Shown here one piece after another: positions 11,233 through 36,711 of a stretch of 64,000 nucleotides of DNA. The position numbers and the translations under genes are program-made. The stretch comes from Mycolicibacterium insubricum (GTDB lineage: Bacteria; Actinomycetota; Actinomycetes; Mycobacteriales; Mycobacteriaceae), in assembly GCF_010731615.1 (NCBI RefSeq), contig NZ_AP022618.1:3286001-3350000 (forward strand), written 5' to 3'. Positions within the stretch are counted from its first letter, which is position 1. Each line of letters starts with the position of its first letter. The notes below the pieces were generated by a model. It searched no databases, had not been told where the DNA came from, and saw only the letters and a program-made list of their open reading frames with translations.

Positions 11233-11343
11233 GCAATACGGCCCTCGACGTTTACTTCGAGCTGTCGTAAATTGGTACCGCCTATTGTCGAACTGGCAAT
11301 CCAGGAAGCCCGGCAATTGTGCAGGTGTCCAAAGGGGTGGGCA

Positions 11344-12339
11344 ATGACGCAAGTGCCGAGCATCGCTCAGAGTCCTGCGGAATCCATACCCTGCCTCAAC
11401 GTCAAGCTACTCGGCGACCCCGAATTCCGATGCAGCACGGGTCCGCTAACTCTCAGCACAAGCTGCCGCGCAATCCTGGCAAACCTCGTTCTGCAGGACG
11501 GTCATCGGTCCAAACGCAGCCGACTGATGTTGGATATCGCCCCCGACGCCGCTCCAGGATCGGCCCGGCGTCGACTCAACACCGCAGTGTGGCGACTCAA
11601 GCGCGCGGTCGATCCGGCAGCACACGCACTGCCGCTGGTCCTCAGCGACGCGCATTCAGTTTCCATAAATCCGCACTATCACGTGGTCAGCGATGTCTCC
11701 GACTTCGAAGCCGCGTGCGACCGTTCACACAGTTCCGTCCAACAATGGGGAGAAGAGGAACTCGGAGCGGCCAATACGGCACTTGACCTCTACCGGGGCG
11801 AATTGTTGTCCGGAATTGCCGACGAATGGGTGCTGGGCCGCCGTGACCAATTGTCGGAACTGCAGACTCAAGTCGCATTGCAGCTGTCCCAATGGCATCG
11901 CATGCGCCACCAATGGCAACAAGCACTCCATTACGCCGAGCACGCCCTTGCCACCCATCCGCTCTCCGAGACCCTGCACAGATTGGTCATCGGAATCCAC
12001 CTCGAGTCCGGCCAGCCTTGGCACGCTCTCCACCACTTCGAAACCTGCCGAAACGTGCTCGCCACGGAGCTGGGAACCGCGCCCGAGCTTGCCACCAACC
12101 GGCTTGCCGAGCGGGTTCGCTCGACACTGCAGACCAGTACCCCGGCAGCAGCCTCGGAATCGACGCGACTGCTCGATTCGACCATCGAATCGGTGATGTC
12201 CGAACTCGCCGACGCCCGGGCATCCCTCGAACGGTGTCGGATCGCCGTCGACGCCGCGACCACGCGGCTGCGTGCCCTCCGGGCCGCGGACCGAATTCCG
12301 CCGACGCCGCAGTCGCCGGTCGCCTCGCCAGCGCGGTAA
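11344..12339 (+). CDS. SARP/BTAD-type transcriptional activator
   Basis: Probable regulator of the CIS operon. The 331-aa product has an OmpR-like winged-helix N-terminal region (about residues 15–110, starting LNVKLLGDPEF and including RRRLNTAVWRLKRAV) followed by a bacterial transcriptional activator domain of helical repeats (about 120–265, with LDLYRGELLSGI and HPLSETLHRLVIGIHLESG). The C terminus is a predicted coiled coil (about 280–315) and a proline-rich tail. This is the AfsR/DnrI/RedD architecture without an ATPase. ATG at 11344 has AGGGG upstream; the frame extends to 11272. Its lower GC suggests a different origin from the core genome. Direct-repeat sites follow immediately downstream. 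Confidence 0.82.
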   Translation: MTQVPSIAQSPAESIPCLNVKLLGDPEFRCSTGPLTLSTSCRAILANLVLQDGHRSKRSRLMLDIAPDAAPGSARRRLNTAVWRLKRAVDPAAHALPLVLSDAHSVSINPHYHVVSDVSDFEAACDRSHSSVQQWGEEELGAANTALDLYRGELLSGIADEWVLGRRDQLSELQTQVALQLSQWHRMRHQWQQALHYAEHALATHPLSETLHRLVIGIHLESGQPWHALHHFETCRNVLATELGTAPELATNRLAERVRSTLQTSTPAAASESTRLLDSTIESVMSELADARASLERCRIAVDAATTRLRALRAADRIPPTPQSPVASPAR

Positions 12340-12343
12340 CCAA

Positions 12344-12388: not shown

Positions 12389-12433
12389 GCCGGTAGAAAC
12401 TCCCCATATCGGCGCGTACCGGAGGAGTTTCAA

Positions 12434-13960
12434 ATGGTCATGCTAGACAAGGGACCCGGCGTCTACGTCGAGGAACTGTCCTCGGGTGTACGCACAATCA
12501 GCGGTGTCGCGACCTCCATCACGGCATTCCTCGGCCGGGCCCAACGCGGACCGGTCGGTGAACCCGTCATGGTCAACAGCTTCACCGAATTCGAGCGGAC
12601 CTTCGGCGGCCTGTGGTTGGAGAGCCACCTCGGGTATTCGGTGCGTGACTTCTTCGCGATGGGCGGCGGCAAGGCGATCATCGTGCGTATCCACCATCCC
12701 AAGTCCACCAACGATGACGGCCGCGCCAAGCTGACCTTCGGGTCCGACAAGGAGCAGCTGGTGCTGTCCGCCGCCAGTGCCGGTTTGTGGGGCTCAAAGC
12801 TGGTCGCCACCCGGGATCGCAAAGTCCCGAAACCATCGGATAACCCGACCCGGTTCAACCTCACGGTCACCGGCGCCGGCAGGACCGAGACGTTCCTGAA
12901 CGTGTCCCGCGCCCCCAATGAACCCCGCTGCGTCAAGCAGGTGCTGGAAAATGAAAGCAAGCTCGTGCGCGTGTCGGGTGCACTGCCGACCAATGCCTCG
13001 GGTCTCAACGATGTGGAGAAGGCAACGGTCACGGGCGGCAACGACGGGGAGAAGATCACCAACGACGATGTGACCGCCGGCCTGTCCACGCTCGACCGGG
13101 TCGACCTCTTCAACATGCTGGTCATCCCGCCGTACCTGGGCGACGGCGACGTGGGGCTCCGTGAGGTCGATGGAACCGTGCTGACGACGGCCATCAAGCT
13201 GGCCACCAAACGCCGAGCCGTCGTCATCATGGACAGTCCACAAGGCTGGACGGACACGGACACCGTGACCGCCAAGCTGACAACCGATACCCCGTTCGTG
13301 GACCGCAGCGACAACGCCGTGACCTATTTCCCGCGGATTTGTCAACCCGACCCGCTACGCGACGGCGCCATCGGCACGTTCGCGCCGTCGGGTGCGATCG
13401 CCGGAATCATCGCCGCCACCGACGCCCAGCGCGGCGTGTGGAAATCGCCCGCCGGAGTCGACGCGAAGCTGGCCGGGGTGTCCGGGCTCAGCGTCACGTT
13501 AACCGACGACAACATCGGCACCCTGAACTCCTCCGGGGTCAACTGCCTGCGCCGGTCGCCCGGCACCGGGGGCCACGTGGTGTGGGGAGCCCGCACCATC
13601 AACGGTGCCGACGCCATCGGATCGGAATGGAAGTACCTCGCCGTCCGGCGCACTTCGCTGTTCCTGCAGGAAAGCCTGCGCCGCGGTCTGCAATGGGTGG
13701 TATTCGAGCCGAATGACGAACCGCTGTGGTCCCAAATCCGTTTGAACGTCGGTTCTTTCATGAACACCTTGTTCCGGCAGGGCGCCTTCAAAGGTTCCAG
13801 CCCGCGCGAGGCCTATCAGGTGAAGTGCGATAGCGACACCACCACGCAGGACGATATCGACCGGGGCGTGGTCAACATCCTGGTGCGGTTCGCGCCGCTC
13901 AAGCCGGCGGAATTCGTCGTTCTTCAACTGCAACAGCTGGCCGGTCAAACCAGCGTTTAA
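12434..13960 (+). CDS. CIS contractile sheath protein
   Basis: Forms the contractile outer sheath of the particle. The 508-aa product has the sheath N terminus (PGVYVEELSSG then ITAFLGRAQRGP), a central variable insert (about residues 90–330), and the conserved C-terminal sheath domain (SLRRGLQWVVFEPND, FRQGAFKGSSPREAYQVKC, VRFAPLKPAEFVV). GGAGGAG six bases upstream supports the ATG at 12434. It is the only sheath gene here, whereas Afp and PVC clusters carry three. First gene of the structural operon, 94 bases after the regulator. Confidence 0.95.
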   Translation: MVMLDKGPGVYVEELSSGVRTISGVATSITAFLGRAQRGPVGEPVMVNSFTEFERTFGGLWLESHLGYSVRDFFAMGGGKAIIVRIHHPKSTNDDGRAKLTFGSDKEQLVLSAASAGLWGSKLVATRDRKVPKPSDNPTRFNLTVTGAGRTETFLNVSRAPNEPRCVKQVLENESKLVRVSGALPTNASGLNDVEKATVTGGNDGEKITNDDVTAGLSTLDRVDLFNMLVIPPYLGDGDVGLREVDGTVLTTAIKLATKRRAVVIMDSPQGWTDTDTVTAKLTTDTPFVDRSDNAVTYFPRICQPDPLRDGAIGTFAPSGAIAGIIAATDAQRGVWKSPAGVDAKLAGVSGLSVTLTDDNIGTLNSSGVNCLRRSPGTGGHVVWGARTINGADAIGSEWKYLAVRRTSLFLQESLRRGLQWVVFEPNDEPLWSQIRLNVGSFMNTLFRQGAFKGSSPREAYQVKCDSDTTTQDDIDRGVVNILVRFAPLKPAEFVVLQLQQLAGQTSV

Positions 13961-13989
13961 GTCCCGACCGACACCGAGAGCGAGACATC

Positions 13990-14511
13990 ATGGCAACGTT
14001 CACCGTCAACGCAAGCCGGTTCGACCCCTACAAGAACTTCAAGTTCCGGGTGAAATGGGATGGGCGATTCGTTGCCGCGGTGAGCAAGATAAGCGCTCTC
14101 AAACGCACCACCGAAGTCGTCGAGCACCGCGACGGCGCGGACCCCTCGACGGCGCACAAGTCGCCCGGCCGCACCAAGTACGAGGCGATCACACTGAGCC
14201 GCGGAGTCACCCACGATGTGGAATTCGAGCAGTGGGCCAACAAGGTCTGGAACCTCGGTTCCGGGCTGGGATCGGAAGTGTCACTGCTGGACTTCCGCAA
14301 GGACCTCATCATCGAGGTGTACAACGAGGCCGGTCAGCTGGCGCTCGCCTACAAGGTTTTCCGGGCCTGGGTATCGGAATACCAGCCACTTCCCGATCTG
14401 GATGCCAACGCTAACGCGGTTGCCATTCAGACCCTCAAACTCGAACATGAGGGCTGGGAACGCGACTACGACGTAGCCGAACCCGCCGAACCGTCCTACG
14501 TCGAACCGTAG
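13990..14511 (+). CDS. CIS inner tube protein (Afp1/5-like, gp19-like)
   Basis: Inner tube subunit, 173 aa, of the phage tail-tube family: YKNFKFRVKWDGRFVAAVSK at residues 14–33, KRTTEVVEHRDG, a central YEAITLSRGV, and a C-terminal QTLKLEHEGWERD. Twenty-nine bases follow the sheath stop, giving the usual sheath–tube order. Only one tube gene is seen. The acidic, proline-containing tail ends in YVEP. Confidence 0.94.
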   Translation: MATFTVNASRFDPYKNFKFRVKWDGRFVAAVSKISALKRTTEVVEHRDGADPSTAHKSPGRTKYEAITLSRGVTHDVEFEQWANKVWNLGSGLGSEVSLLDFRKDLIIEVYNEAGQLALAYKVFRAWVSEYQPLPDLDANANAVAIQTLKLEHEGWERDYDVAEPAEPSYVEP

Positions 14512-14515
14512 TCCC

Positions 14516-15211
14516 ATGCGCAACGACCAGCTTCTCGCCATCCACGAACTCGCAGGAAAAACAGCCGGAGCACCGCGGGGACTGCTGCTCGCCGTACTCC
14601 TGGACGAGGCGGAAGTCCAGCCGACCGAACCGGTCGGACGCACCCACGCCCGGCTGCTACGACTGCACGGTCAGCTCGCCAGCGGTCCACTCACCGCCAC
14701 CGCGGTGTGCACCGACTGCGAGGCAGTCGTCGAGTTCGCGGTCGATATCGCCGACCTGTGCATGCTGGAGGCCGGCATCGTCGACCACCCCGCGCCGCTG
14801 CAGCATGACGGCGAGTTGATCCGGTGGCGCCCAGCGTCACTGTCGGACCTCGGTGCCATCGACATCGAATCCAGCCACGCCGCAAGTGACCTCGTGGCGC
14901 GTTGTCTTGCCGAGGAACACCGACCATTGGCCGGCGAGCTGCGTGCTCAGGTCGCCCAGGCCATGACCGAGGCCGATCCGCTCGCGGAGATCATCGTGAC
15001 CGTGGCCTGTCCGGAATGCGGCAGCGGCATCGACACGCTGTTGGATCCCGTCGACTTCGTGTGGTCTCACGTCGATGCGCGGGCCCGAGAGCTGCTGAGC
15101 CAGGTCGACCTGCTGGCCCGTGGCTACGGCTGGAGTGAACGGGACATCCTCGACCTGCCGGCTGCCCGACGAAACCACTACGTGGACCTGTTGATCGGTG
15201 ATGACCTGTGA
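14516..15211 (+). CDS. Putative CIS baseplate or assembly protein with four-cysteine zinc site
   Basis: A 231-aa protein not firmly assigned. It has two CxxC pairs, CTDC (about residue 64) and CPEC (about residue 165), that could bind one zinc ion. The C-terminal half carries a motif (YGWSERDILDLPAARRNHY) resembling the T4-baseplate-type helper proteins found in the same place in other CIS loci. It starts four bases after the tube gene and its stop overlaps the next start. A role in baseplate or tube assembly is inferred from position. Confidence 0.6.
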   Translation: MRNDQLLAIHELAGKTAGAPRGLLLAVLLDEAEVQPTEPVGRTHARLLRLHGQLASGPLTATAVCTDCEAVVEFAVDIADLCMLEAGIVDHPAPLQHDGELIRWRPASLSDLGAIDIESSHAASDLVARCLAEEHRPLAGELRAQVAQAMTEADPLAEIIVTVACPECGSGIDTLLDPVDFVWSHVDARARELLSQVDLLARGYGWSERDILDLPAARRNHYVDLLIGDDL

Positions 15212-16035
15212 CCGACCTCGTGGGCCGTCTGGTGGACAGTGCGCGGGGCCGTGCCCGGCATGCACGACTACGCCCCACTCCCCCGATCGTGTGGCAGACC
15301 CGCCCCGGCGATGGGCCGGGCGCCGGGCTCCCGTTCGCCGATTCCGCCGCCCTCCCGGCAACAAGCAGCCCGGTGCAGTTACACCCGGCCACGGTGGGCA
15401 TGCGCAAACTGGTTGAGCTCAAAGAGCATTGCGTTGCCCCCAGGTCGGCCGATCCGGCACCGCCGAGCCGAAAGGAACCACCGCAGGCCGTGCCGGTTTC
15501 TTCGCCCGTGCGCCCGAGCGTGTCACCGGCGACGGTAGTCCTGCCGGCGGCGGCGCAGGCTCCGGTATCCCGTCCGGCGCTCTCGACAAAGCTGTCGACC
15601 ACGGATCGAACACCCAACGATCACGCCCCCCGACGAGGGCTACCGCTGCCGGTTCCACCGCCGATCCCGACACCCGAATCGGCCCCGCGGCCGACCGAAT
15701 CCGATCCGGCACAGGCGGTACGCCCCGAACCGGTTCGGGCCGAGCCTCACAACCTCGATGGACCACCAGCACGCCAACGCGCACTTCCTGTCTCCGACCC
15801 CAGCCCGGTGCTGGCCCCGCGACCCACCTTCTCCAGCGTCGCGAAACCGTCGGCTGCCATTCACGTCCACATCGACCGCATCGAAATCCAGGGCGCGCCG
15901 CCTGCACCGGTCGGCGCGGCCGCACCGGCACCGGCACCGGTGCCGCCCGGCCCGCCCGGCGCCGCGGCGCCAGCCGTGCTCTCGCTCGCGGACTACCTGC
16001 GCGGGAGCCGCGCTACCGGACCGGGGCAGACATGA
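15208..16035 (+). CDS. Proline-rich CIS-associated protein with C-terminal RIEI...DYLR motif
   Basis: 275 aa, mostly low-complexity proline, alanine and serine (about residues 50–215), probably disordered. A short structured C terminus reads IHVHIDRIEIQG and, after a second proline run, LSLADYLRG. This RIE(I/V)…(D)DYL ending recurs, to my knowledge, in proteins between the tube and Afp7-like genes of many CIS loci, but its role is not known to me. GTG at 15208 overlaps the preceding stop by four bases; the end overlaps the next ATG. Confidence 0.65.
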   Translation: MTDLVGRLVDSARGRARHARLRPTPPIVWQTRPGDGPGAGLPFADSAALPATSSPVQLHPATVGMRKLVELKEHCVAPRSADPAPPSRKEPPQAVPVSSPVRPSVSPATVVLPAAAQAPVSRPALSTKLSTTDRTPNDHAPRRGLPLPVPPPIPTPESAPRPTESDPAQAVRPEPVRAEPHNLDGPPARQRALPVSDPSPVLAPRPTFSSVAKPSAAIHVHIDRIEIQGAPPAPVGAAAPAPAPVPPGPPGAAAPAVLSLADYLRGSRATGPGQT

Positions 16036-16292
16036 CGTACACGCGGCGCGGTACTGCGCAACCCGGAATCGTCGTGCTCAATGTCGGGCACCTGGTGGTG
16101 TCGGGCGTCCCGCACGCGGCGGCGCAGCAGACCATCGCGGCATTCCAGCAGCGGTTGGCCACGGTGCTGCCATACGTAACCAACGGCGTCGGACAGACGC
16201 CGGTGAGCACCGAACATCCGGGTGGCCCGGCGTTTCTCGGGTTGGTCGCCGCCGACCGCATCGCAGCGGCAGTCAGATTCGAGATCACCTGA
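16032..16292 (+). CDS. Small CIS-operon protein, unknown function
   Basis: 86 aa with no family I recognise. It has a beta-rich N terminus (IVVLNVGHLVVSG), an alpha-helical middle (HAAAQQTIAAFQQRLATVL), and ends FEIT. The frame is open far upstream, but ATG at 16032 overlaps the stop of the previous gene, and its own stop overlaps the next ATG by one base (TGATG). This tight packing is the main evidence that it is translated. Confidence 0.6.
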   Translation: MTYTRRGTAQPGIVVLNVGHLVVSGVPHAAAQQTIAAFQQRLATVLPYVTNGVGQTPVSTEHPGGPAFLGLVAADRIAAAVRFEIT

Positions 16293-16924
16293 TGTTCGCA
16301 CGCACCCTGAAAGCCGGCCTGGTGACCGTCGACCCGACCTCCGGCACCGTGGGGCGAGTCATCGCCATGCAGTACAACCCGGAGACCGTGACCCGCACGC
16401 TGGCCCTGCAATCGGCCGGCAGTGACCCCGGCCAACCGCTGCGGCTCAAGGGGGTCGCCGTCGAGACCATCCGGGTCGAGGCACACCTCGACGCCACCGA
16501 CGAGCTGGCCGATGCGACCAAGTATCCAGACACCGTGCAGTTCGGCATCCACCCGCAGCTCGCGGCGCTGGCATCGCTGGTCAACCCGACCGTCGCGGCG
16601 ATCAACGCCAATCAGCAGCTCGCCGCCGCCGGGTCGTTCGACGCACTGGCCGAGGAATCCCCGTTGACGCTCATGGTGTGGTCCCGGGAACGCGTGGTAC
16701 CGGTGCGGCTCACCGAGCTCGGCATCACCGAGGAACTCTTCGACACCCGGTTGAACCCCATCCGCGCCAAGGTCAGCCTTGCGCTGCGGGTGCTCTCCGT
16801 CGATGACCTCGGTGTGGCGCATCACGGTGGCGGCGTGCATCTCGCCTATCTCGGAAACCTGGAGAAGCTCGCCGCACGGGCTAAGTCGTCCGCACTGGAA
16901 ACATTGGGAGTGACGGTGCTGTGA
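16292..16924 (+). CDS. CIS tube-initiator / Afp7-type N-terminal domain protein
   Basis: 210 aa matching the CIS_tube domain of Afp7/Pvc7-like proteins, which joins the tube to the baseplate hub: an early beta strand leads to MQYNPETVTRTLALQS, then a charged strand (ETIRVEAHLDATDELA), SPLTLMVWSRERVVPVRL and the closing LNPIRAKVSLALRVLS. In Afp the same protein also carries a LysM domain; here that part seems to be the separate next gene. Overlaps both neighbours. Confidence 0.78.
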   Translation: MFARTLKAGLVTVDPTSGTVGRVIAMQYNPETVTRTLALQSAGSDPGQPLRLKGVAVETIRVEAHLDATDELADATKYPDTVQFGIHPQLAALASLVNPTVAAINANQQLAAAGSFDALAEESPLTLMVWSRERVVPVRLTELGITEELFDTRLNPIRAKVSLALRVLSVDDLGVAHHGGGVHLAYLGNLEKLAARAKSSALETLGVTVL

Positions 16925-17292
16925 TGGACGAGGCGATGGATCAGCTCCTGGGCGGCACCCCGGCCGGTTCACCCACCGACCCGACGAGTCGCTACCACGA
17001 TGTGGGTACGTCGATTTTCGGAGATGGCCTGGATGCCGTCACCTACTACCGGCGTCGGCTGATACCCGAACCACGCGCACACACCCTGCTGTATCAGACC
17101 CGCATCGCCGACGGAGACCGCCGGGACAATCTGGCGCAGCGTCACCTCAATAGCCCTTATCTGTGGTGGATCCTCGCCGACGCCAACGCCATTCGAGATG
17201 CATCGGAACTGGAGGGACCAGCCGGTCAGGCGCTTCGGATCACCACCCCGGCCACGCCGGAGGCCACCGACAGCGATGACGAGCATGCGTGA
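16921..17292 (+). CDS. LysM-like baseplate protein (gp53 / Afp7 C-terminal type)
   Basis: 123 aa from GTG 16921 (or ATG 16924). The core resembles T4 gp53-type LysM-like proteins: TYYRRRLIPEP, then a YQTRIADGDRRDNLAQRHL hairpin and YLWWILADANAIRD, ending in a PATPE acidic tail. In this family the fold clamps baseplate subunits rather than binding peptidoglycan. Overlaps the previous gene by four bases and the next by about 17. Confidence 0.75.
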   Translation: MMDEAMDQLLGGTPAGSPTDPTSRYHDVGTSIFGDGLDAVTYYRRRLIPEPRAHTLLYQTRIADGDRRDNLAQRHLNSPYLWWILADANAIRDASELEGPAGQALRITTPATPEATDSDDEHA

Positions 17293-18412
17293 CCTGCCCC
17301 CCGGTCCCGTTCGGGTCCAACTCTTCCTCGGGCCCGGTGTTCCGATACCGGTGAACGCCGACATCTTGAACGCCCTGACAGCAGTGAAGGTGGAAAGCTC
17401 CGCCGGTGAGGCACAGAGCGGTTTCGAGCTGACCTTCACCATTCCGCGCGACTCACCGATCCAGGCGCTGGCTCCGATCGATGTGCCCTTGTTGCGCTGT
17501 GTCATCGCGGTCAGCCTGCGCGGAACGACGACGGTCCTGATGGACGGGGTTGTCACGCACCACGACGTCGCGACCAACGGTCCGCAACTGACCCTGCATG
17601 TCAAGGGCAAGGATCTGTCCGCGGCGATGGACGTCATCGCGTTCGACGGAGTGCCCTACCCGGCGATGTCGCCCTCGATGATCGCGCTCACATGTCTGGC
17701 CAAATACGCTGCGCTGGGTTGTGTTCCACTGGTGATTCCCGGACCCGCCGAAGATATCCCGTTGCCGACGGAACGCATCCCAACACAGCAGGGCACGGAC
17801 TACAAGTTTCTCAAGGGTTTGGCCGAAACCGTCGGACACGTGTTCTACCTCGATCCCGGGCCCACGGTGGGTGTCAGCCGCGCCTACTGGGGCCCGGAAG
17901 TGCGCACCGGCGTGCCGCAGCCGGCGCTGACCGTCGGGCAGGGCGCGCATATCGACAACGTGACCTCACTGTCGTTCAGCTTCGACAAGGAGCGCAAACA
18001 ACTGCCGGTGGTGATGATCCACGAGAAGACCAGCCACGCCTCAATCCCCGTCCCCATCCCCGACGTGACGCCGCTGAACCCTCCGTTGGGACTGGTCAGC
18101 CCCATTCCGCCGAAGCAGCATCGACTAGCCGAGACCGCGAACCTGAGTCCGATCGCCGCCCTCGCCAAGGGCATCGGGTACGCAGCGGCACACCAGGATT
18201 GCGCATTCGGCTCGGGCGCACTGGAGGTGGCCAGGTACGGACACGTCCTGCAGGCCCGCGCCCTGGTGGGGGTCCGCGGCGCCGGGCTCGCCTACGACGG
18301 CCTCTACTTCGTCACCAAGGTAACCCACGACATCCGCCGCGGCGGCTACACCCAGCAATTCAGCCTGGCCCGCAACGGGTTGATCTCCACCGTCCCGGCG
18401 GTGCCGGCATGA
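17276..18412 (+). CDS. CIS baseplate hub, gp27/GPD-like
   Basis: 378-aa hub that holds the spike, of the phage late-control D/gp27 type: a beta-barrel N terminus (VNADILNALTAVKVESSAGE, FTIPRDSP), the GKDLSAAMD strand, a PAMSPSMIALTCLAKYA helix, YKFLKGLAETVGHVFYLDPG and a C-terminal barrel ending in GLYFVTKVTHDIRRGGYTQQF. ATG 17276 or ATG 17285 are possible starts. The four-base overlap with the gp5-like spike gene downstream matches their physical partnership. Confidence 0.85.
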   Translation: MTSMRDLPPGPVRVQLFLGPGVPIPVNADILNALTAVKVESSAGEAQSGFELTFTIPRDSPIQALAPIDVPLLRCVIAVSLRGTTTVLMDGVVTHHDVATNGPQLTLHVKGKDLSAAMDVIAFDGVPYPAMSPSMIALTCLAKYAALGCVPLVIPGPAEDIPLPTERIPTQQGTDYKFLKGLAETVGHVFYLDPGPTVGVSRAYWGPEVRTGVPQPALTVGQGAHIDNVTSLSFSFDKERKQLPVVMIHEKTSHASIPVPIPDVTPLNPPLGLVSPIPPKQHRLAETANLSPIAALAKGIGYAAAHQDCAFGSGALEVARYGHVLQARALVGVRGAGLAYDGLYFVTKVTHDIRRGGYTQQFSLARNGLISTVPAVPA

Positions 18413-18936
18413 CCGATCTGCAGGACACCACCCGGCCACGCTACCTGGGTAAACACCGGGGCACCGTGGTCAACAATGTCGACCCACAGCACCTGGGCCG
18501 GATCCAGGTAACGGTTCCCGATGTATCACCGGGCATTTCGAGTTGGGCCATGCCGTGCGTGCCGATGGGCGGTCAGGGGCACGGCATCTACACCGTGCCG
18601 TCGATGGGGTCGGCGGTGTGGGTCGAGTACGAACACGGCGACGCCGACTACCCCGTCTGGGTGGGGTGCTTCTGGGGCAGTCCGGCAGAAGTGCCCGCGA
18701 TCACCGCGACGGTTCCGCCCGGGGTGAACGGAGTGTCCATTCAGACACAGGGTGGACACGTCCTGACGATCAGCGACACACCGGGACCGACAGGCGGGAT
18801 TCTGCTGAGAACAACTGGGGGATCCATGATCTCGGTGAGCGAAGTCGGCATCACGATCACCAACGGCAAGGGTGCCGCCATCACGCTCACCGGACCCACC
18901 ACCGATATCAACACGGGCGCATTGACGGTGATCTGA
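18409..18936 (+). CDS. CIS spike protein, gp5/VgrG-like OB fold and beta needle
   Basis: 175 aa. The N-terminal OB fold (YLGKHRGTVVNNVDPQHLGR, VTVPDV) is followed by a WVEYEHGDADYPVWVGCFWG loop and a C-terminal stretch of short beta repeats (about residues 105–175) expected to form the trimeric beta-helical needle. It lacks a lysozyme domain. Lies between the hub and the PAAR tip gene, as expected for the central spike. Confidence 0.9.
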   Translation: MTDLQDTTRPRYLGKHRGTVVNNVDPQHLGRIQVTVPDVSPGISSWAMPCVPMGGQGHGIYTVPSMGSAVWVEYEHGDADYPVWVGCFWGSPAEVPAITATVPPGVNGVSIQTQGGHVLTISDTPGPTGGILLRTTGGSMISVSEVGITITNGKGAAITLTGPTTDINTGALTVI

Positions 18937-18937: not shown

Positions 18938-19255
18938 ATGCCCGCGCCCGTCCTGACCGCCTCCGCCACCGTGTTGTGCTCGCACGCGGGCACCGCCACC
19001 CCGGTCACGCCCACCCCGCGGGTCCTGCTCGACGGGGCTCCCGCGGTCACGATCAGCTCCCCGTACGCCATCGCCGGATGTACACTCAGCGCCACCCCGA
19101 CGCCGCCGTGTGTCACCGGGCAATGGCTCTCCGGCGCGATCCGCGTCAGCTCGGCGGGACAACCACTGGCCGTGCAGGCCGCGTCCTCGACAAGCATCCC
19201 GACTGGCACCCCGATGCTGGCGGTGGCAACCCAGGCCAGGGTGGTGGCAACATGA
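18938..19255 (+). CDS. PAAR-like spike tip protein
   Basis: 105 aa with the short-strand, glycine- and proline-rich pattern of PAAR-like tips: LCSHAGTATPVTPTPRVLLDG, a central PYAIAGCTLSATPTPPC and a PLAVQAASSTSIPTGTP end. PAAR proteins sharpen the spike and can carry effectors; no extra C-terminal domain is attached here. Starts two bases after the spike gene and overlaps the gp25-like gene. Confidence 0.85.
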   Translation: MPAPVLTASATVLCSHAGTATPVTPTPRVLLDGAPAVTISSPYAIAGCTLSATPTPPCVTGQWLSGAIRVSSAGQPLAVQAASSTSIPTGTPMLAVATQARVVAT

Positions 19256-29900: not shown

Positions 29901-30127
29901 TGGCCAATAATATTTGCAACGCACCGGACTTCAGTACGGCGTTCACCGTCCAAATCGCGGGCCATTCGGCAGCAATTACCGGCAATCACATTCGGGGTGG
30001 CCAGCACTCGCTCGCCCTGGGGGTGTCCAACACACGGCTGAGTGTGCTCGGCAATCTGGTCTCCGCAGGTTCGATCAGCGGTCTTCCAGCAGGATTCGCA
30101 CCCTTCAACATCTACGGAGTGAACTGA
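26939..30127 (+). CDS. DUF6519 N-terminal domain plus beta-helix; candidate receptor-binding protein
   Basis: 1,062 aa, the largest island protein. The N terminus (residues 1–40; FDAVRNYNRVIRLQGRLSLD, then a NEQ motif) is a DUF6519-type attachment domain usual in CIS loci. From about residue 480 to 960 runs a right-handed parallel beta-helix with recurring NxI/V...GNxV turns (for example ICGNQVSGF, DNQVHDTGDGI, SGNTLRDI). No catalytic triad is evident. GTG at 26939 has AAGGGG upstream. In the absence of a trimeric fibre gene, this is the best candidate for target recognition. Confidence 0.75.
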   Translation: MGTDIAGVRFDAVRNYNRVIRLQGRLSLDADDNEQHAIYDRRSRAAAADLGSPGPRPGIAGTAVVPRTTPDAFALSVSGGSLMIGTGRMYIDGIAAENHGVPSAPGPVPVDPLLGGTEYGTPVPYPTQPYFTPAPALPTTGTHLVYLDVWEREITAVESPDLIDDALGVDTTARSQVVWQVRVHAPDSPGIDCKTIDSAIPGWIEVIAASAGRLTVETTPVDPDDNPCCLPLSGGFRGRGNQTYRVEIHDPGPAGTATFKWSRENASITLAVTEVLPDHRLRLTSLGHDDILGLHTDDWCEIIDDHCELDGRPGAMRRIIVDTDRNEVSFDSALPAELAVDTAGALQRHLRVRRWDQSGLVRTNTGATVADLDLPTATGILTVPAVATPIVLEDGITATLTAPGGVFHTGDHWIFEARTGTAWVRPLVDAPPVGPLHHYARLGILVNGVPASDCRVPWPPEPGGDCGDCAVCVSAEEHNSGAHTIQMAIDDIAATGGVVCLGPGDFVLDRPAELIKIGDVHIHGQGAATRLVGSNDIFVIMVSFGITLSDFAVLSGGLRTSVPLIDYEGPAAAIRIISAERIHVEHLAIDIKSVADQPGRAVKMHESLLDATFRNNRIHAPIGFCGWENNDHPLLLDNVAIRENTMVVEAAGVHIDGQAYFRGDVTVADNRISGSAQRAAITARGSTSDDGATLVKRNHITIAEGAGILVGSAGITVTDNIVTAHPPDIADIFVANGITSDPNGEKSENSCPTRICGNQVSGFLGAAIDVRHATVAIDVCDNQVHDTGDGIAIRFQVSDMSARVSGNTLRDILSRFGGGAQMVAGILIAGAAGAEVADNTVIRVGPERNPECTAVGVLLYGIAGCRVLGNDITDVGYPMDPGQSFDCTVLAVSRITLHGNQSARQRGYPTADRARGVGLLVQSVLGDFAAALNPDTAYIDDQVVYSDGGSWLGNPALEPACAIDGNTWTGSIEQPAVVIETREHPVVLANNICNAPDFSTAFTVQIAGHSAAITGNHIRGGQHSLALGVSNTRLSVLGNLVSAGSISGLPAGFAPFNIYGVN

Positions 30128-30648
30128 TGCCCTACCTCATCACCGGCAAGCGGATCGGCGTCGATCGGCTGGTCGACGGACTGCTCACCGCCCGGGCCGG
30201 CACGACACAGCGGGAATGGGCGAAAACCGCCCTGATCGACGCCAATCCGGCGCTCGGCCGCGCAGCGGTGCCCAGGGGCACCCTGTTGCGGATCCCGAAG
30301 ATGACGAACCTGCGGCAGGATCTCAGCGCCCTCGGCGAGGTGCTCGAGAGCGCCCGTCGTGCCGACGTTGCCGCGACCATCGCCGGGTTACCCGCTCGCG
30401 CGGCCAAGGACTGCGCCGCGGCGCGCAACCTGCAGAAACAGCGGTCCGAGCATCTCGATCGACTCGCGGCCGGCGCCGCCAATCGCGGACCTGGTCTGGG
30501 CAAGCGCAGCCTCAGCCGGCTCCGCAACGGCCTGGATCAAACTGTCGCAGACGCCGATGCCCGCGCCGAACGACTTTCGGCGGCCGTACCGAACTGGCTG
30601 GACCGCCTAGCGGCGCTCGACGAGCTGCAAGCCCAGCGACGGTACTAG
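30127..30648 (+). CDS. LysM/phage-tail-X-like protein with helical C terminus
   Basis: 173 aa. The first 60 residues resemble a tail protein X/LysM-like fold: EWAKTALIDANPALGRAAVP followed by RGTLLRIP. The remainder (about residues 75–170) is charged and predicted helical, with possible coiled coil (QRSEHLDRL, ADARAERLSAAV). The start shares a base with the previous stop. It could be a short structural linker. Too short to be a normal tape measure. Confidence 0.6.
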   Translation: MPYLITGKRIGVDRLVDGLLTARAGTTQREWAKTALIDANPALGRAAVPRGTLLRIPKMTNLRQDLSALGEVLESARRADVAATIAGLPARAAKDCAAARNLQKQRSEHLDRLAAGAANRGPGLGKRSLSRLRNGLDQTVADADARAERLSAAVPNWLDRLAALDELQAQRRY

Positions 30649-30676: not shown

Positions 30677-31900
30677 ATGAGCAACGCGCGGGCGGCGGCT
30701 GGCGTCACCGCGGCATTGGTCACGCTGGTGCAGCAGGCCGTCGACACCCTGGGCATCACGCCCGGCCCGGTGGTCACCGCCTCCAGTCTGGAGGACAGCG
30801 GCGATCACGGCCGAATCAGCATCACGCTGTACCGAATCACGCGAAACGGATACCTCGGCAACGACACCCTGCCCAGCCGGCACGGTACCGGGCGAATACA
30901 CACGACCCCTCGGGCAGCTTTCGATCTGCACTATCTGCTCTGTTTCCGTGCCGATTCAGATTTCGACGCCCACACCATGCTCGCAGCGGCGGCCGTTGCC
31001 GTGGAGGCACAGCCCACAGTGTCGGCGAACCTGCTGGCGCTGGCAGCGGCCGATCATCCGGAGATCGTCGGCAACGACCTTGCCGACGCTGCCGAGTACG
31101 TGCGATTGAGCACCGAAACCCTCGGCTCCGACGAGGTCGCCCGGCTCTGGGCGCTGTACCCGCCCGGTTCCTTCGCTCCGACCCTCGCCGTCACTGCCGG
31201 GCCGGTGGTGATCGACTCGACCTTGGTGGCCCCGCCGACGTATCCGGTCCGCACGGTGGGCAATTCGATTCGGCCGAGCACGGCGGGCCCGCGGCTGGAT
31301 ACCATCGCGGGGCCCGACGGTATCGGGGCGCCGATCCGAGCCACATCCGCGCCGGCGCCGCTTACGTTGCGCGGTGCCGGATTTTGCGCCGGCGGGCAAA
31401 TGGACGCACTCATCGACGGCGTTGTCGCACCTACCACTGTCGTCGACGACGGCGAGATCACTGTCGCGACGCCCATTCTCGACGCCGGCGGCCATCGGAT
31501 TCAGGTACGCCGCAGCGATCCCCCGGGAGACAGTCAGGTGTCAAGCACTCGACAGCTCCAGTTCAGCGAAACCCGGGTGGCCTGGATCGTGCCGAGCATC
31601 GACGGCACACCCACGGTGGCGGCCGCGGCACCCCCGGCCATCGGCTCGGGGGTGATCAGCGCAACGGTGCACCCCCCGGTTCGGCGGGGTCAGCGGGTTT
31701 CGCTGATCCTGGACACCGACGCACGTACTCTCGTGCTGCCGTGCGCACCCCTCGCGGATGCCCCCGGCACCGGCGTGGACTTCCCCTTCCTAGACCTGCC
31801 CTCGGCTACCTATCGGATCACACTGGACGTCAACGGGGTACGCAGCATTCCGCCGGTCGATGCCAGCGACAGGTACGCACCGATAGCGGTGACGCTGTGA
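30677..31900 (+). CDS. DUF4255 sheath/tube terminator (Afp16-like) with IPT-like domain
   Basis: 407 aa. The N-terminal DUF4255/Pvc16 domain (about residues 1–190; VVTASSLEDSGDHGRISITL, FDLHYLLCFRADSDF, AEYVRLSTETLGSDEVARLW) caps the distal end of the sheath and tube. A second domain (about 215–300) looks like an IPT/TIG Ig-like fold (LTLRGAGFCAGGQMDALIDG). GGGAGGG upstream supports ATG 30677. Order relative to the ATPase is reversed compared with Afp. Confidence 0.85.
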   Translation: MSNARAAAGVTAALVTLVQQAVDTLGITPGPVVTASSLEDSGDHGRISITLYRITRNGYLGNDTLPSRHGTGRIHTTPRAAFDLHYLLCFRADSDFDAHTMLAAAAVAVEAQPTVSANLLALAAADHPEIVGNDLADAAEYVRLSTETLGSDEVARLWALYPPGSFAPTLAVTAGPVVIDSTLVAPPTYPVRTVGNSIRPSTAGPRLDTIAGPDGIGAPIRATSAPAPLTLRGAGFCAGGQMDALIDGVVAPTTVVDDGEITVATPILDAGGHRIQVRRSDPPGDSQVSSTRQLQFSETRVAWIVPSIDGTPTVAAAAPPAIGSGVISATVHPPVRRGQRVSLILDTDARTLVLPCAPLADAPGTGVDFPFLDLPSATYRITLDVNGVRSIPPVDASDRYAPIAVTL

Positions 31901-33882
31901 ACAGCCCCGACCCACGCTGTCCATCGGCGACTGCAGAACTGCAGCGCTGGTGGTATCGCGAGAATCAACGCCATCTGGCGCTTTCTGCCGCTGCCGTCAC
32001 CGCTCGGCTCGTCGGTGACCTGGCTGCCGCCGAGACCGGTGAGCAGGCCGCCAGGGATGTGGCCAGCGACGTATTGCATCGCACCGGCATCCGGGTGGGA
32101 ATAGAAACTGTCTCCACACTGTTTGACCTGACCCGGTTTGAAACCAGCATTGTGGTGGCCGCCGCAGCCCCCGAGCTGGGCGTGGCGGAACCCGGCGGCA
32201 TCAGCTTTCAGCAAGCCCTGGAGAACTTGCCGGAACCGCACTGGAGTGCGGTACTCCCGGACCGGCCGTTGCGAGGTTGGCGACTGCTGACTCTTCCGGG
32301 GTCCGCTACCGGCATCGGGATGACCAACATCGCCCTGACGCTCGATGAGCGGGTCCTACACGGACTGCTCGGGGCCCGCACCGTCGACGGGCAGCTCGCC
32401 GGGCTGGCCGAACTGGCCAGCCCGGTGTGCGAACTGACCGACGCACAGACGACCTCAGCGCAGCGCCTGGCCCGGATGTGTGCTTCGGCGGCCGGCGGGG
32501 GGCCAGGCTTCGAACCGGTGGTGCTGACCGGCGAGGATCAGTTGACTCGCCGTCAGGTCACAATCACCGCCGGCGCCGAACTCAGCTATGAGGCGCTGGT
32601 GGTGCGCGGTGACGGGCTGCGGCCGGCGACGCGTCTGCCCGAGCATCCGGCGGACCGGGCGGCTCTCACTCGACTGCTGGCGCGTGAAGCGGGCCTGGGC
32701 CGGCGACTGCTTCTCATCGAGGCCGAGAGCCTCGACGATATCGCAGAATTCGGCCGCCAGACGGCCGCGCACGGCGCTCCAGTAGTGCTCTCGGTGCCCG
32801 TGGTGTCAGCTGAGAACAGCCATTCCGATCTACCGAGAATCCTCATCCCACCGTGCACCGTTGCCGACCGCGTGGCGCTGCTGCAGGCCGATCTCAGCCT
32901 GCACGGGCGGCCGATCGAGAGCGACGCTGCGCGCGACCTTGCCGCCAGGCATGCACTGACCGCCGCGCAAGTTCCCACCGTGGTTTCCCGTGCCGTCCGA
33001 TTGACCGCCGAAGACGGTCCGGTATCCCTCAACGAACTGGAGGAGGCCGCGCACTCCGCTGCCGCTCAACCTCTCTCAGGACTGGCGATGGTGCGTCGCG
33101 CCCACGCCCAACTGTCCGATCTGGTGTTGCCTGATTCGGCGCTGCGCAGCCTGCACGCCTTGGTGGCCACCGTGCGCCAGCGCGAGCGGGTGTACGGCGA
33201 GTGGGGTTACCGCACCCGGCTGCGCGGCACCGGTGTCACCGCCATGTTCGCCGGGCCGTCGGGCACCGGGAAGACCACCGCGGCCGAAGCCGTCGCGCAC
33301 GAGCTGGGGCGCGATGTCGTCGCCGTGGATCTCAGCCAGGTGGTGAGCAAGTACATCGGCGACACGCAGAAGAATCTCGCCACGCTGTTCGCCGCCAACG
33401 AGGGCGGTTCGGTCCTGTTGTTCGATGAGGGGGATGCGTTGTTCGGCCGTCGCACCGCTGTGCGGGACAGCCATGACAGGTACGCCAACCTCGAGGTGAG
33501 CTATCTGCTGCAACGTATGGAGACATTCGACGGCATTGCGATCATCACCACCAATACCCGGGAGAACGTCGACTCCGCCTTTACCCGCCGATTTCGCTTC
33601 GTGGTGAATTTCCCGTTCCCCGATCAGGCCCAACGTGCGCAGCTGTGGAGCGCCGCATTTCCGGCCGGGGTGCCTACCGAGGGCCTGCAACCGGAGCGAC
33701 TGGCCCAGCTATCGGTCAGTGGCGGCACGATCAGCCAGATCGCCATGCACGCAGCGTTCCTCGCCGCCGACGAAGGCTGCCCGGTGACCATGTCACATCT
33801 GCTGCAGGCCGTGCGCATCGAATGTGACAAACTGGAACGCGCGCTGGCAGCCAATGAGGTCAAGGGCTGGGTTACCCAGTGA
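31897..33882 (+). CDS. AAA+ ATPase, Afp15-like
   Basis: 661 aa. The C-terminal AAA+ module has Walker A GPSGTGKT at residues 453–460, Walker B LLFDEGDA (Asp510-Glu511), sensor 1 TTNT, and an arginine-finger-like FTRRFRF. The N-terminal half is a degenerate, helical domain that places ring assembly near GLAMVRRAHAQLSDLVLP. Afp15-type ATPases are needed for particle assembly in relatives; their presence distinguishes CIS of this class from R-type pyocins. GTG 31897 overlaps the DUF4255 stop, and the next gene's GTG overlaps its own. Confidence 0.9.
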   Translation: MNSPDPRCPSATAELQRWWYRENQRHLALSAAAVTARLVGDLAAAETGEQAARDVASDVLHRTGIRVGIETVSTLFDLTRFETSIVVAAAAPELGVAEPGGISFQQALENLPEPHWSAVLPDRPLRGWRLLTLPGSATGIGMTNIALTLDERVLHGLLGARTVDGQLAGLAELASPVCELTDAQTTSAQRLARMCASAAGGGPGFEPVVLTGEDQLTRRQVTITAGAELSYEALVVRGDGLRPATRLPEHPADRAALTRLLAREAGLGRRLLLIEAESLDDIAEFGRQTAAHGAPVVLSVPVVSAENSHSDLPRILIPPCTVADRVALLQADLSLHGRPIESDAARDLAARHALTAAQVPTVVSRAVRLTAEDGPVSLNELEEAAHSAAAQPLSGLAMVRRAHAQLSDLVLPDSALRSLHALVATVRQRERVYGEWGYRTRLRGTGVTAMFAGPSGTGKTTAAEAVAHELGRDVVAVDLSQVVSKYIGDTQKNLATLFAANEGGSVLLFDEGDALFGRRTAVRDSHDRYANLEVSYLLQRMETFDGIAIITTNTRENVDSAFTRRFRFVVNFPFPDQAQRAQLWSAAFPAGVPTEGLQPERLAQLSVSGGTISQIAMHAAFLAADEGCPVTMSHLLQAVRIECDKLERALAANEVKGWVTQ

Positions 33883-36662
33883 CCGAACCCCGCGATGGCA
33901 GTCGCGACTGGGTCGCGCCGCCGGCCCCCTACACAGTCGACTACGGCGGCGAGCAACGCACCATCACCCGGGAACAGTGGAGCCCGGAAGATCCCACGTT
34001 CGCCCGGATTAACCTCGGAGCGTTCAACATTCCGCGGTCCAAGGGCCCATGGCAGCAGCACTATGACAGGTTGGCGAAAGACAATGCCCTGCAGGCGGTC
34101 ACCTCGGTCAGCTCCGGGAGAATCAGTGCGGCGCTGTGGCAGCAACGGGCGCCCACCGCCGAGCTGCGCAACCTGTGGCTGCTGCGGATGGGATGGCCCA
34201 GGGCCCAGGCCCCCAGCTGGTGGGAAGAAGCCGGCGGAAACAACAGCGACGGAACCGAGTTCAATCCCCGTGCCGGTGGCAAAGCCGCCCAAATCGACCA
34301 CATCGTGGAACTGCAGCTCGGGGGGACCAATGTGCCGGAGAACCTTGCACCGCACACCGACACCGACAATACGGCCAGCGGGCGCGAGATTTGGACGGGT
34401 CTGCGCAGCGCGGCGCAGTCCGCTGCCACTGAGATAGCCAAGCGGCCGGGCGGCAACAAGCTGACAAGCCTGGCGCTGCACTTCGATTCGGCAAAGCAGT
34501 CGGGCGCCTATGACCTCGGGGATCCACTTCCCGAGCTGCCGGCTCCCGGTGCCTCCAATCGAGCAGAGGTGCTCGCCAGCCGCAAGGGCAAGGCGAAAAC
34601 GGCGCTGCGTGTGCATTTCACCGCGGAGAAGGATCGCGAAAACCGGACGCGGCCGACCGAAGCGGATATGACTGTTCAAGCGGCGATGAACTCGACGCTG
34701 CCGGAGTACCCCATCCGGGCCGCGACCTCGGCTGTGCTTCGGGTATCCGAGACCGCAGACAAGGACCAGATCGAGAACTCCACTATTCCTGAGAACCACG
34801 CGGCTCGTGAGTTGATCAGCGGGATGGTGCTATCCCAGCTGCACCGCCCAAAGGGTTCCGGCAAGACCCACACCATCGACGCCTGGCTGGATTCACCCGC
34901 CCATCCCGCCGAGGGCGGCCGTAAGAAGACGCGCAATCCCATCAAGTTCGACCAGGGCGACAAACCGATCAAGCTCACCGTCACCGATCCCAAGGGCACC
35001 GGGAAGCTTCAAATGCCGGACAAGGGGACGGCCGTGGCCTTCACTTATCCGTATCTGTCCCGCGGCCAGATGACGCTCAAACTCAACGACGCCGGCGAAC
35101 TTTCCGGACACGGCACGTTGACCCCAAGCGTACCGCTGCTGTCCAAGGTGCCGATCATCGTCGACTGGGATTCGACGGGATTGCGCGGATCGATACAGCC
35201 GCCTGTTGACAAGCTCAGCCTGCCGCCCTTCCGGATCACCGAGGCGGCTCTAACGGTTTCATTCGCCCCCGAGTTGTCGGCCGGCGGGCACATCGCCTTC
35301 GTGATCGGCAGCTTCGCCGAGGGGCGGATCACCGCCGGAGTCGACACCCGGGGGCTTTACGCCACCGGCGACCTCGCTGCCAAGATACCGGGGCTGGACG
35401 CCGCCGGCGGCCATGTCGAGTACCGACCGTCCACGGGTTTGACCGGGTGGGCCGAGGCGCGCGCCAGCAAGGGCACCGGCGTGATCCGATCCGGGTTGTT
35501 GAGGGTTGACCTCGCCCAGGGTAATTGGAGCGTCCAGGGCGAAGTTTCCGCGATGCTGCCGGGTGACTCGCCGGCCGTTCTGTCTGCCAAGCGGGTCGGC
35601 GACAAAGTGGTGTATTCGGGTCGGGCCACACTGAATGTCCCCGGCCTGCATCCCGTAGAGGTCACCGACCTCAGCTATGACGGCACACAAGTGTCCGGCA
35701 GCGCCCGTACAACATTTTCCGTTCTCGGAGCAACGGGCACGTTGGTGCTGGGTTACCGCGACGGTAAGTTCACCGGCCGCGGGGACGCTGAGCTGAAGCG
35801 AGGCAAATTCACCGGTAAGCTCGGCGCCGAACTGCATCCGACCGGAGCGCTAACCGGGACGGGTTCCGGACAGATCGAGTTCAAGCCTGGCTTGGTCGGG
35901 GCCGTCAGGCTCGAGTACGGAGCGGACCGACGGTTGAAGACAACCGGCGAAATACGTTTCCCGCCTTACACTTTCCTGCAGCCACACAGCAACCGAAGGC
36001 AGATATTTCAACGCAGCTTACCCGATATTCCGCTATTCGCCATCCCGCTCGGAGTCGGGGCAGTGGGGCTCGTGGGACGCATCGGCGGCGGTTTGGCGGT
36101 GCGGTACGGATACGGGCCGGGTGTGCTGCGCGACATGGTAATTCGCGCGACCATGTATCCGCTCGAACCGGATCATCAGCTCGAGGCGGCCGCCGAGGCC
36201 ACCCTGGACCTGCCCGCCGAGGCCGGTATCGAACTGTCAGTGCGGGCCGGGATAGGGGCATCGGTGGCCTTTGCCAGTGCTACCGGGGGAATCACCGTTG
36301 TCGGTGGCGTGCTGCTGCGCGGCGGCATGTCGGCAAAGGCGACGCTGAGCTACGCGCGCGATGTGCTGATTCTCGATGCCGCCGCGAAGATTTCCGCCAC
36401 TCCGATTCTCACGCTGCGGGTTGACGCCGACATCGTCATCGAGGCGGTGACCGGCGGCTCGTGGCGCTGGCCCTACAACCTGGCCGCCTATTCGTTGCCG
36501 CTCGGTGGCGAGTTCGGTTTGATCGCGCCGTTTTCCTACCGCAGTGATCAACCCCTGCGCCTACCGGCGGTAAGCGACATCCGGTGGATCGTGCCCGACA
36601 TCGATGTCACGGCCCTTGCTACCCAGGTCGGCAACCGCGTTCGCGCGGCGATCAGCAGCTAG
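33879..36662 (+). CDS. Large CIS-linked protein with HNH-like motif; candidate payload
   Basis: 927 aa, last gene of the operon. Near residues 140–164 lies an HNH-nuclease-like pattern: Asp140-His141-Ile, Gly148-Gly149, Asn155-Leu, and Asn164 followed by TASG. The rest is strand-rich. From about residue 380 to 690 come repeated Gly-rich strands (GHGTLTPSVPL, GRGDAELKRGKFTGK, GTGSGQIEFKPG), and the C-terminal 240 residues have a further glycine-rich module. No signal peptide or clear membrane helix is seen. Position after the ATPase is typical of CIS cargo, but nuclease activity and loading are inferred. It could instead be structural. Confidence 0.6.
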   Translation: MTEPRDGSRDWVAPPAPYTVDYGGEQRTITREQWSPEDPTFARINLGAFNIPRSKGPWQQHYDRLAKDNALQAVTSVSSGRISAALWQQRAPTAELRNLWLLRMGWPRAQAPSWWEEAGGNNSDGTEFNPRAGGKAAQIDHIVELQLGGTNVPENLAPHTDTDNTASGREIWTGLRSAAQSAATEIAKRPGGNKLTSLALHFDSAKQSGAYDLGDPLPELPAPGASNRAEVLASRKGKAKTALRVHFTAEKDRENRTRPTEADMTVQAAMNSTLPEYPIRAATSAVLRVSETADKDQIENSTIPENHAARELISGMVLSQLHRPKGSGKTHTIDAWLDSPAHPAEGGRKKTRNPIKFDQGDKPIKLTVTDPKGTGKLQMPDKGTAVAFTYPYLSRGQMTLKLNDAGELSGHGTLTPSVPLLSKVPIIVDWDSTGLRGSIQPPVDKLSLPPFRITEAALTVSFAPELSAGGHIAFVIGSFAEGRITAGVDTRGLYATGDLAAKIPGLDAAGGHVEYRPSTGLTGWAEARASKGTGVIRSGLLRVDLAQGNWSVQGEVSAMLPGDSPAVLSAKRVGDKVVYSGRATLNVPGLHPVEVTDLSYDGTQVSGSARTTFSVLGATGTLVLGYRDGKFTGRGDAELKRGKFTGKLGAELHPTGALTGTGSGQIEFKPGLVGAVRLEYGADRRLKTTGEIRFPPYTFLQPHSNRRQIFQRSLPDIPLFAIPLGVGAVGLVGRIGGGLAVRYGYGPGVLRDMVIRATMYPLEPDHQLEAAAEATLDLPAEAGIELSVRAGIGASVAFASATGGITVVGGVLLRGGMSAKATLSYARDVLILDAAAKISATPILTLRVDADIVIEAVTGGSWRWPYNLAAYSLPLGGEFGLIAPFSYRSDQPLRLPAVSDIRWIVPDIDVTALATQVGNRVRAAISS

Positions 36663-36711
36663 CCAAGCACGCAGTAGACAACCAATCTGTGCCAGCACGG
36701 TGTCGGCAGGC

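What the first reader, a model, noticed from the sequence alone, without database searches (positions are those of the whole stretch)
11233..36711. A near-complete extracellular-type contractile injection system in a mycobacterial chromosome
Seen: 19 consecutive plus-strand genes after the regulator, including sheath, tube, hub, spike, PAAR, gp25, two gp6-like, DUF6519, DUF4255 and an AAA+ ATPase. Known: Afp, PVC, MAC and Streptomyces CIS carry this core. CIS loci are well known in Streptomyces; I am not aware of one characterised in mycobacteria. No lysis, capsid or secretion genes are present.
Basis: partly seen in the sequence, partly recalled or inferred. Interest (0 to 1): 0.92.

Follow-up and report, generated by a model that had tools for sequence, protein, structure and literature searches.

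The report
Repeat-flanked mycobacterial injection-machine gene island
A mycobacterium carries a complete-looking set of genes for a phage-tail-like molecular syringe, apparently acquired from other soil bacteria and inserted beside a housekeeping gene, and its only likely payload protein has lost the domain that its relatives carry and that is thought to load such payloads.

Summary
Confirmed. A regulator and exactly 19 plus-strand genes encode a complete-looking contractile injection system (CIS): sheath, tube, hub, spike, gp25, two baseplate-J proteins, DUF6519 fibre, Pvc16-type cap, AAA+ ATPase and a terminal 927-aa protein. No capsid, lysis or integrase gene was recognised. The island interrupts asnB-adoK, close neighbours in 31 of 32 measured relatives, and lies exactly between two perfect 72-bp copies of the adoK 3' end. 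GC3 is 0.79 against 0.91 in the flanks. Gene order matches Streptomyces tanashiensis and a Kitasatospora; a tree groups it with them, not with four other mycobacterial CIS loci. Mycobacterial CIS are not unique: 34 of 396 genus genomes have a sheath relative, 25 of these also a tube match. A 508-aa Mycolicibacterium insubricum sheath, possibly this one, is in a 2022 table. The 927-aa protein is an HNH-nuclease-like candidate effector; 44 of 50 family members carry N-terminal DUF4157, this one does not, and no DUF4157 was detected in its genome, though the 14 other CIS-bearing genomes searched have it. Best reading: a horizontally acquired, fibre-bearing eCIS that either loads cargo without DUF4157 or is losing its payload. 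Expression, release and target are untested.

The parts
11161..11232 (.). left copy of the 72-bp perfect direct repeat (duplicate of the adoK 3' end); attL-like
11344..12339 (+). SARP-type regulator with BTAD domain (a TTG start at 11272 is also possible)
   Evidence: PF03704 E 9e-20; 29% to the regulator at the same place in S. tanashiensis and Kitasatospora
12434..13960 (+). contractile sheath, 508 aa
   Evidence: PF04984, PF17482; profile to Pvc2 E 2e-58, Afp3 E 4e-50, AlgoCIS sheath E 6e-48, top hit 8bky E 7e-104
13990..14511 (+). inner tube
   Evidence: PF06841 E 1.2e-44
14516..15211 (+). T4_baseplate-family protein, probably hub assembly chaperone (role recalled)
   Evidence: PF12322 in 9 of 9 aligned members, best 2e-9, own member 0.046
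15208..16035 (+). Pro/Ala-rich protein, C-terminal motif shared with the S. tanashiensis locus
   Evidence: no family
16032..16292 (+). small 86-aa protein
   Evidence: open frame overlapping both neighbours; no family
16292..16924 (+). CIS_tube-family (PF19266), Afp7-like baseplate protein
   Evidence: PF19266 E 2e-5, below its cut-off; profile to 9rce_H E 8e-5
16924..17292 (+). LysM-like baseplate protein
   Evidence: profile to a LysM domain-containing protein 9gtp_P E 1e-5; PHROG baseplate wedge E 4e-5
17276..18412 (+). spike hub (VgrG/gp27-like)
   Evidence: profile to VgrG 9rce_F E 7e-13
18409..18936 (+). spike OB-fold protein
   Evidence: PF04717 E 4e-22
18938..19255 (+). PAAR-like tip (by position and conservation only)
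   Evidence: no useful family hit
19252..19656 (+). baseplate wedge gp25
   Evidence: PF04965 E 1.5e-13
19653..22175 (+). baseplate J / gp6-like protein 1
   Evidence: PF04865 E 1.5e-7; PHROG baseplate wedge
22172..24715 (+). baseplate J / gp6-like protein 2
   Evidence: PF04865 E 1.5e-8; PHROG baseplate wedge
24712..26910 (+). tail protein, possible fibre adaptor of the Tail_P2_I kind (inferred)
   Evidence: TIGR02242 in 2 of 7 aligned members, PF10076 weakly in 5 of 7; own member no confident hit
26939..30127 (+). DUF6519 (eBAP5) tail fibre with beta-helix
   Evidence: PF20129 E 2e-45, PF13229 E 8e-12
30127..30648 (+). 173-aa protein of unknown role
   Evidence: 31% to a gene at the same place in G078; no family
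30677..31900 (+). Pvc16/DUF4255 tail terminator (cap)
   Evidence: PF14065 E 1.8e-25
31897..33882 (+). AAA+ ATPase (Pvc15-like)
   Evidence: PF00004 E 1.3e-24
33879..36662 (+). 927-aa HNH-like candidate effector without DUF4157
36712..36783 (.). right copy of the 72-bp repeat = 3' end of adoK (36712-37686, minus)

Best explanation
The island encodes a horizontally acquired, fibre-bearing eCIS. Shown: an intact 20-gene cassette collinear with Streptomyces and Kitasatospora loci, set between two copies of the adoK 3' end. Inferred: a SARP regulator turns it on; sheath, tube and baseplate assemble in the cytoplasm, with the AAA+ ATPase loading cargo and the Pvc16 protein capping the tail; particles leave when the cell lyses (no lysis gene was recognised); the DUF6519/beta-helix fibre binds the target and the sheath contracts. 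The terminal 927-aa HNH-like protein is the likely payload. Unlike 44 of 50 family members it has no DUF4157, and only about ten residues precede the shared body, so it is either packaged by its own body or not packaged. The island probably entered by site-specific recombination at the adoK 3' end; no tyrosine recombinase lies in it.
For: Family and profile hits for nearly every structural part. Collinearity from regulator to terminal effector in S. tanashiensis and Kitasatospora sp. DSM 101779. Tree of 13 proteins in 9 loci (some proteins missing from single loci): window with those two, 100/100; one clade of the five mycobacterial loci rejected, p-AU 0.0005. GC3 0.79 in 16 of the 20 genes against 0.91 in the called flank genes. 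asnB and adoK close in relatives: stop-to-stop gap 107 bp or less in 31 of 32, 747 in one; 25,557 in the window, 6 if one repeat copy and the island are left out. Perfect 72-bp repeat, found twice in this genome. DUF6519 as fibre class (PMC12923769, passages). HNH residues D140, H141, E144, N155 and N164 invariant in 49 of 49 aligned rows. A DUF4157 protein binds a tube-initiator protein in S. lividans (PMC13277306, passages).
Confidence: 0.6

Rival explanations
1. It is an intracellular CIS, like those of Streptomyces coelicolor and S. lividans: it stays in the cytoplasm and acts on the producer under stress.
For: Nearest whole loci compared are in Streptomyces and Kitasatospora; no lysis gene recognised; no tape-measure gene recognised; no immunity gene between the nuclease candidate and adoK.
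Against: The studied Streptomyces CIS lack a fibre (PMC10066040 and PMC13277306, passages), whereas this locus has a DUF6519 fibre with beta-helix. Whether one of the 20 proteins is a membrane adaptor is open: a plain hydropathy scan gave 19-residue means of 1.66 to 2.04 in five proteins (highest in fibre and hub), which neither shows nor excludes one; no membrane-helix predictor was run.
Confidence: 0.2
2. It is a decaying island: the machine may assemble but its payload has lost the loading domain and the system is on its way out.
For: Effector lacks DUF4157; no PF13699 match in this genome while the 14 other CIS-bearing genomes searched have one; no integrase found in the island.
Against: All 20 frames are open and 12 of 19 junctions overlap by 1-4 bases; the effector keeps its HNH residues and full body; DUF4157-less family members recur elsewhere on the tree.
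Confidence: 0.15
3. It is a prophage tail remnant or an R-type tailocin.
For: Sheath, tube, gp25, spike and J proteins match phage tail families.
Against: AAA+ ATPase, Pvc16 and DUF6519 present, no head, lysis or integrase gene recognised; sheath closer to Pvc, Afp and AlgoCIS sheaths than to T4-like phage sheaths.
Confidence: 0.03

Closest known systems
CIS loci of Streptomyces tanashiensis JCM 4086 and Kitasatospora sp. DSM 101779 (public genomes; I know of no characterisation)
   Same: same gene order from SARP to terminal HNH-like effector; sheath 59%, tube 87-88%, hub 64-65%, AAA 54%, effector 54%
   Different: both have a PF13699 (DUF4157) match just ahead of the effector body (Kitasatospora protein P0023); in S. 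tanashiensis the next long frame after the effector is on the other strand and is not adoK-like by its sequence start; the Kitasatospora site was not examined
CIS of Streptomyces coelicolor / S. lividans (CISSc, SLP; type IId)
   Same: actinobacterial CIS with sheath, tube, spike, gp25, baseplate and cap proteins; no typical tape measure
   Different: those lack a typical tail fibre and stay intracellular (PMC10066040, PMC13277306, passages); this one has a DUF6519 fibre
eBAP5/DUF6519 eCIS class (PMC12923769)
   Same: DUF6519 fibre with beta-helix end, downstream of baseplate J and a tail protein, in an Actinobacteriota genome
   Different: the paper says eBAP3/5 loci largely lack Afp12 homologues, while this locus has two baseplate-J genes; read in passages only; whether it lists this genome is unknown
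AlgoCIS / PVC / Afp
   Same: same core parts and AAA+ ATPase
   Different: AlgoCIS cargo proteins Cgo1 and Cgo2 carry DUF4157 (PMC8894135, passages); PVC/Afp fibres are of another class (PMC12923769, passages)

Membership tests
extracellular contractile injection system (eCIS) | at least ten core parts and one eCIS-specific part (Afp12, 13, 14 or 16), the criterion in PMC8213781 | tested here: met
   Pvc16_N PF14065 E 1.8e-25. Its own HMM set was not used
extracellular contractile injection system (eCIS) | sheath of CIS rather than phage type | tested here: met
   Pvc2 E 2e-58, Afp3 4e-50, AlgoCIS 6e-48, Anabaena 2e-47; 8kee 'sheath' 6e-18, gp18 7e-11. The top hits 8bky, 8bl4 and 9ezm bear only the name phage tail sheath; I recall the first two as archaeal CIS
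extracellular contractile injection system (eCIS) | eCIS core domain DUF4157 in or near an effector | tested here: not met
   0 matches in the own genome; 14 of 15 CIS genomes chosen by me positive, only this one negative. The domain is common, not obligatory
extracellular contractile injection system (eCIS) | particles released and acting on other cells | not testable with these tools
   needs electron microscopy and fractionation
eBAP5 fibre class | DUF6519 domain in a fibre-like protein downstream of the baseplate genes | tested here: met
   PF20129 155.9 bits against cut-off 22.4, plus beta-helix
Streptomyces type IId intracellular CIS | no tail fibre | tested here: not met
   DUF6519 fibre present
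prophage tail / R-type tailocin | head, lysis or integrase genes nearby, no AAA+/Pvc16 | tested here: not met
   20 genes in Pfam and PHROGs; ten flanking genes; tyrosine recombinases lie elsewhere
type VI secretion system | membrane complex TssJLM and ClpV | not tested
   no search made
HNH endonuclease (PF01844) | conserved D-H ... N ... N motif in a beta-beta-alpha unit | tested here: met
   invariant in 49 of 49 aligned rows; strand 135-141, strand 156-160, helix 161-187 in a model of mean pLDDT 92.6
HNH endonuclease (PF01844) | score above Pfam's cut-off | tested here: not met
   14.5 against 21.4 bits; PHROG HNH family E 0.005
HNH endonuclease (PF01844) | structural match to solved nucleases | tested here: inconclusive
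site-specific integrated island | direct repeat of a host gene end at both borders | tested here: met
   perfect 72 bp; longest shared exact word in 486 random stretch pairs of the window was 14
site-specific integrated island | own integrase | tested here: not met
   10 tyrosine-recombinase matches in the genome, none in the island; serine recombinases not searched genome-wide, none among the 20 genes

The most novel reading that the evidence does not exclude
A mobile injection-machine island without a recombinase of its own: a complete fibre-bearing eCIS that moves as a bare cassette into the adoK 3' end with help in trans, and packages a large nuclease effector through the effector's own body, without DUF4157 or a long leader. 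The effector's very long beta-rich C-terminal half (predicted, with a loose resemblance to outer-membrane barrels) might then serve both for docking and for crossing the target membrane.
Probability: 0.2. Interest if true: 0.78.

Novelty: new variant of a known kind. Interest (0 to 1): 0.58.

Why it matters
The role of DUF4157, the highly conserved eCIS core domain, is an open question; the papers seen propose loading, chaperoning and docking. A complete natural system in which the effector body survives while the domain is gone, beside the same gene order elsewhere with the domain kept, makes that question testable by looking inside purified particles. It also adds a defined insertion site and repeat for horizontal spread of a CIS island into mycobacteria, and shows that part of the genus carries fibre-bearing CIS, which bears on the belief that actinobacterial CIS act only inside their producer.

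Tried and rejected

Rows dropped or limited: P0034 was left out of alignment A9 and of the effector tree (a fragment lacking the HNH part); P0051 is marked partial, so its lack of DUF4157 is unsure. In the asnB-adoK count L154 (contig edge) and the window's own locus were not counted. The genus searches scored at most three or two candidates per genome, so weak second copies can be missed. In one search the tube may lie in another locus than the sheath.
Full report
What is there. The window is bases 3,286,001-3,350,000 of a single-contig genome of 4,577,045 bp. A regulator (11344-12339) is followed by exactly 19 plus-strand genes, 12434-36662; 12 of the 19 junctions overlap by 1-4 bases. Pfam recognises regulator, sheath, tube and spike and gp25, two baseplate-J proteins, DUF6519 with beta-helix, Pvc16 and AAA+ ATPase. 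Profiles built from relatives add the hub (VgrG, E 7e-13), an Afp7-like protein, a LysM-like protein (also PHROG baseplate wedge) and a T4_baseplate-family protein (9 of 9 members, own member weak). The tip is PAAR-like only by position and conservation. The sheath profile finds Pvc2 at E 2e-58, Afp3 at 4e-50 and AlgoCIS at 6e-48; its top hit, 8bky at 7e-104, is named only 'phage tail sheath' in the listing. The genome has one sheath match and one tube match.

Not a prophage tail. All 20 genes were scanned in Pfam and PHROGs: none was recognised as capsid, portal, terminase, lysis or integrase, though five have no match at E 0.01 in either library. Ten flanking genes are respiratory, asparagine-synthase, PfkB, Fe-S, glycerate-kinase and cobalamin genes; the names asnB and adoK are recalled from mycobacterial annotation and rest here on Pfam Asn_synthase and PfkB. 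The ten listed of 245 phage records hold sheaths of 23-28% identity.

An inserted island. asnB (9223-11154, +) and adoK (36712-37686, -) are neighbours in relatives: of 32 measured loci, 31 have 107 bp or less between the stop codons and one has 747; in the window it is 25,557. In the two genomes whose adoK end scores best (85% and 83% over 100 bp; adoK 87%) the site is empty. The island is bordered by a perfect 72-bp direct repeat, 11161-11232 and 36712-36783; the right copy is the end of adoK. In 486 pairs of random stretches of the window the longest shared exact word was 14 (500 draws, near pairs skipped). The repeat occurs twice in the genome. The finding's coordinates are the interior of this repeat. 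GC3 is 0.79 in 16 of the 20 island genes and 0.91 in the flanks. This looks like site-specific integration into a gene end, yet the ten tyrosine-recombinase matches of the genome all lie elsewhere; serine recombinases were not searched genome-wide.

Origin. Gene by gene, the island is collinear with loci of Streptomyces tanashiensis and Kitasatospora sp. DSM 101779, including the regulator first and the terminal effector last. In G078, G367, G133, G276 and G052 the Pvc16 and ATPase genes lie upstream of the baseplate genes instead. A tree of 13 proteins in nine loci, a few proteins missing from single loci, puts the window with the Streptomyces/Kitasatospora pair (100/100) and rejects one clade of the five mycobacterial loci (p-AU 0.0005). 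The terminal effector itself is nearest to unnamed proteins (P0004-P0006) and to P0009 of Nocardioides salsibiostraticola, so the immediate donor is open.

How common. Of 396 genomes of the genus (drawn evenly from a larger group) 34, the window's included, have a sheath relative; 25 of these 34 have a PF06841 tube match somewhere in the genome and 11 a DUF6519 protein. The terminal effector was found in 1 of 396, the window's own, at E 1e-10. So CIS in mycobacteria are scattered and of several lineages, and among those sampled only this one carries this effector.

How it may work. From established knowledge of CIS: cytoplasmic assembly, loading, binding by fibres, contraction, delivery. Published passages support DUF6519 as a fibre class (PMC12923769), DUF4157 proteins as cargo in AlgoCIS (PMC8894135), and binding of a DUF4157 protein to a tube-initiator protein in S. 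lividans, where it may bridge to an effector without the domain (PMC13277306). The window's system has neither the domain in its effector nor a detectable partner with it. Either the effector docks by itself, or it is not loaded. Which holds cannot be told from sequence.

What is known. Seen in passages: Geller 2021 (PMC8213781; its only 'mycobacter' occurrence is a reference), Casu 2023 (PMC10066040), PMC12923769, PMC13277306, PMC8894135, PMC11297309, PMC12067865, PMC12113844, PMC10654092, PMC12607691, PMC5819568. PMC12067865 reports DUF4157 domain-containing proteins next to ripC in several mycobacteria; no such match rang in the window's genome, which I did not follow further. PMC9230969 lists a 508-aa sheath of Mycolicibacterium insubricum JCM 16366 among chromosomal sheaths; the window's sheath is also 508 aa. 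That the window is this species is a guess from the length alone. PMC10654092 has a table row with one prophage for one M. insubricum genome (passage); whether that is this island is not told in the passage. Searches for CIS in mycobacteria (25 of 40, 11 of 11, 2 of 2 and 8 of 14 papers listed) showed no paper that, from title and abstract start, describes one functionally; supplements and subscription papers were not seen, and Chen 2019 was not held.

Verdict. It is a new variant of a known kind: a repeat-bordered, fibre-bearing CIS island without a recognised recombinase, in a mycobacterium, with a DUF4157-free nuclease-like effector.

Noticed in passing
genomes G152, G165, G194, G297, G323, G324, G349, G352, G391 (e.g. 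L031:5649-6764): Nine of the 34 mycobacterial genomes with a sheath relative have no PF06841 tube match; in the G352 and G391 regions read, no other window gene has a match beside the sheath-like gene.
   Followed up: partly
L037:5345-15694 (G177) and similar in other mycobacteria: A second, distant CIS type in the genus: sheath 33-36% identical to the window's, in G177 without DUF6519 and with two tube matches.
   Followed up: partly
G276:C1, 3534039-3534109 and 3560718-3560789 (L040, L039): This mycobacterial CIS also lies between two direct repeats of 72 nt, 92% identical, 26.7 kb apart. Whether they are attachment sites was not examined.
   Followed up: no
P0014, P0043, P0045 (database proteins): Other family members without DUF4157; P0043 and P0045 have about 46 residues ahead of the shared body in its place, Pro/Ala/Thr-rich in P0043.
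   Followed up: partly
window 16924-17292 and 17276-18412: The hub gene starts inside the LysM-like gene, an overlap of 17 bases if the ATG at 17276 is used; the true start may be 17285.
   Followed up: no
whole genome: PMC12067865 describes DUF4157-like proteins beside ripC in several mycobacteria, yet no PF13699 match rang in this genome; distant members may simply score below the threshold.
   Followed up: no
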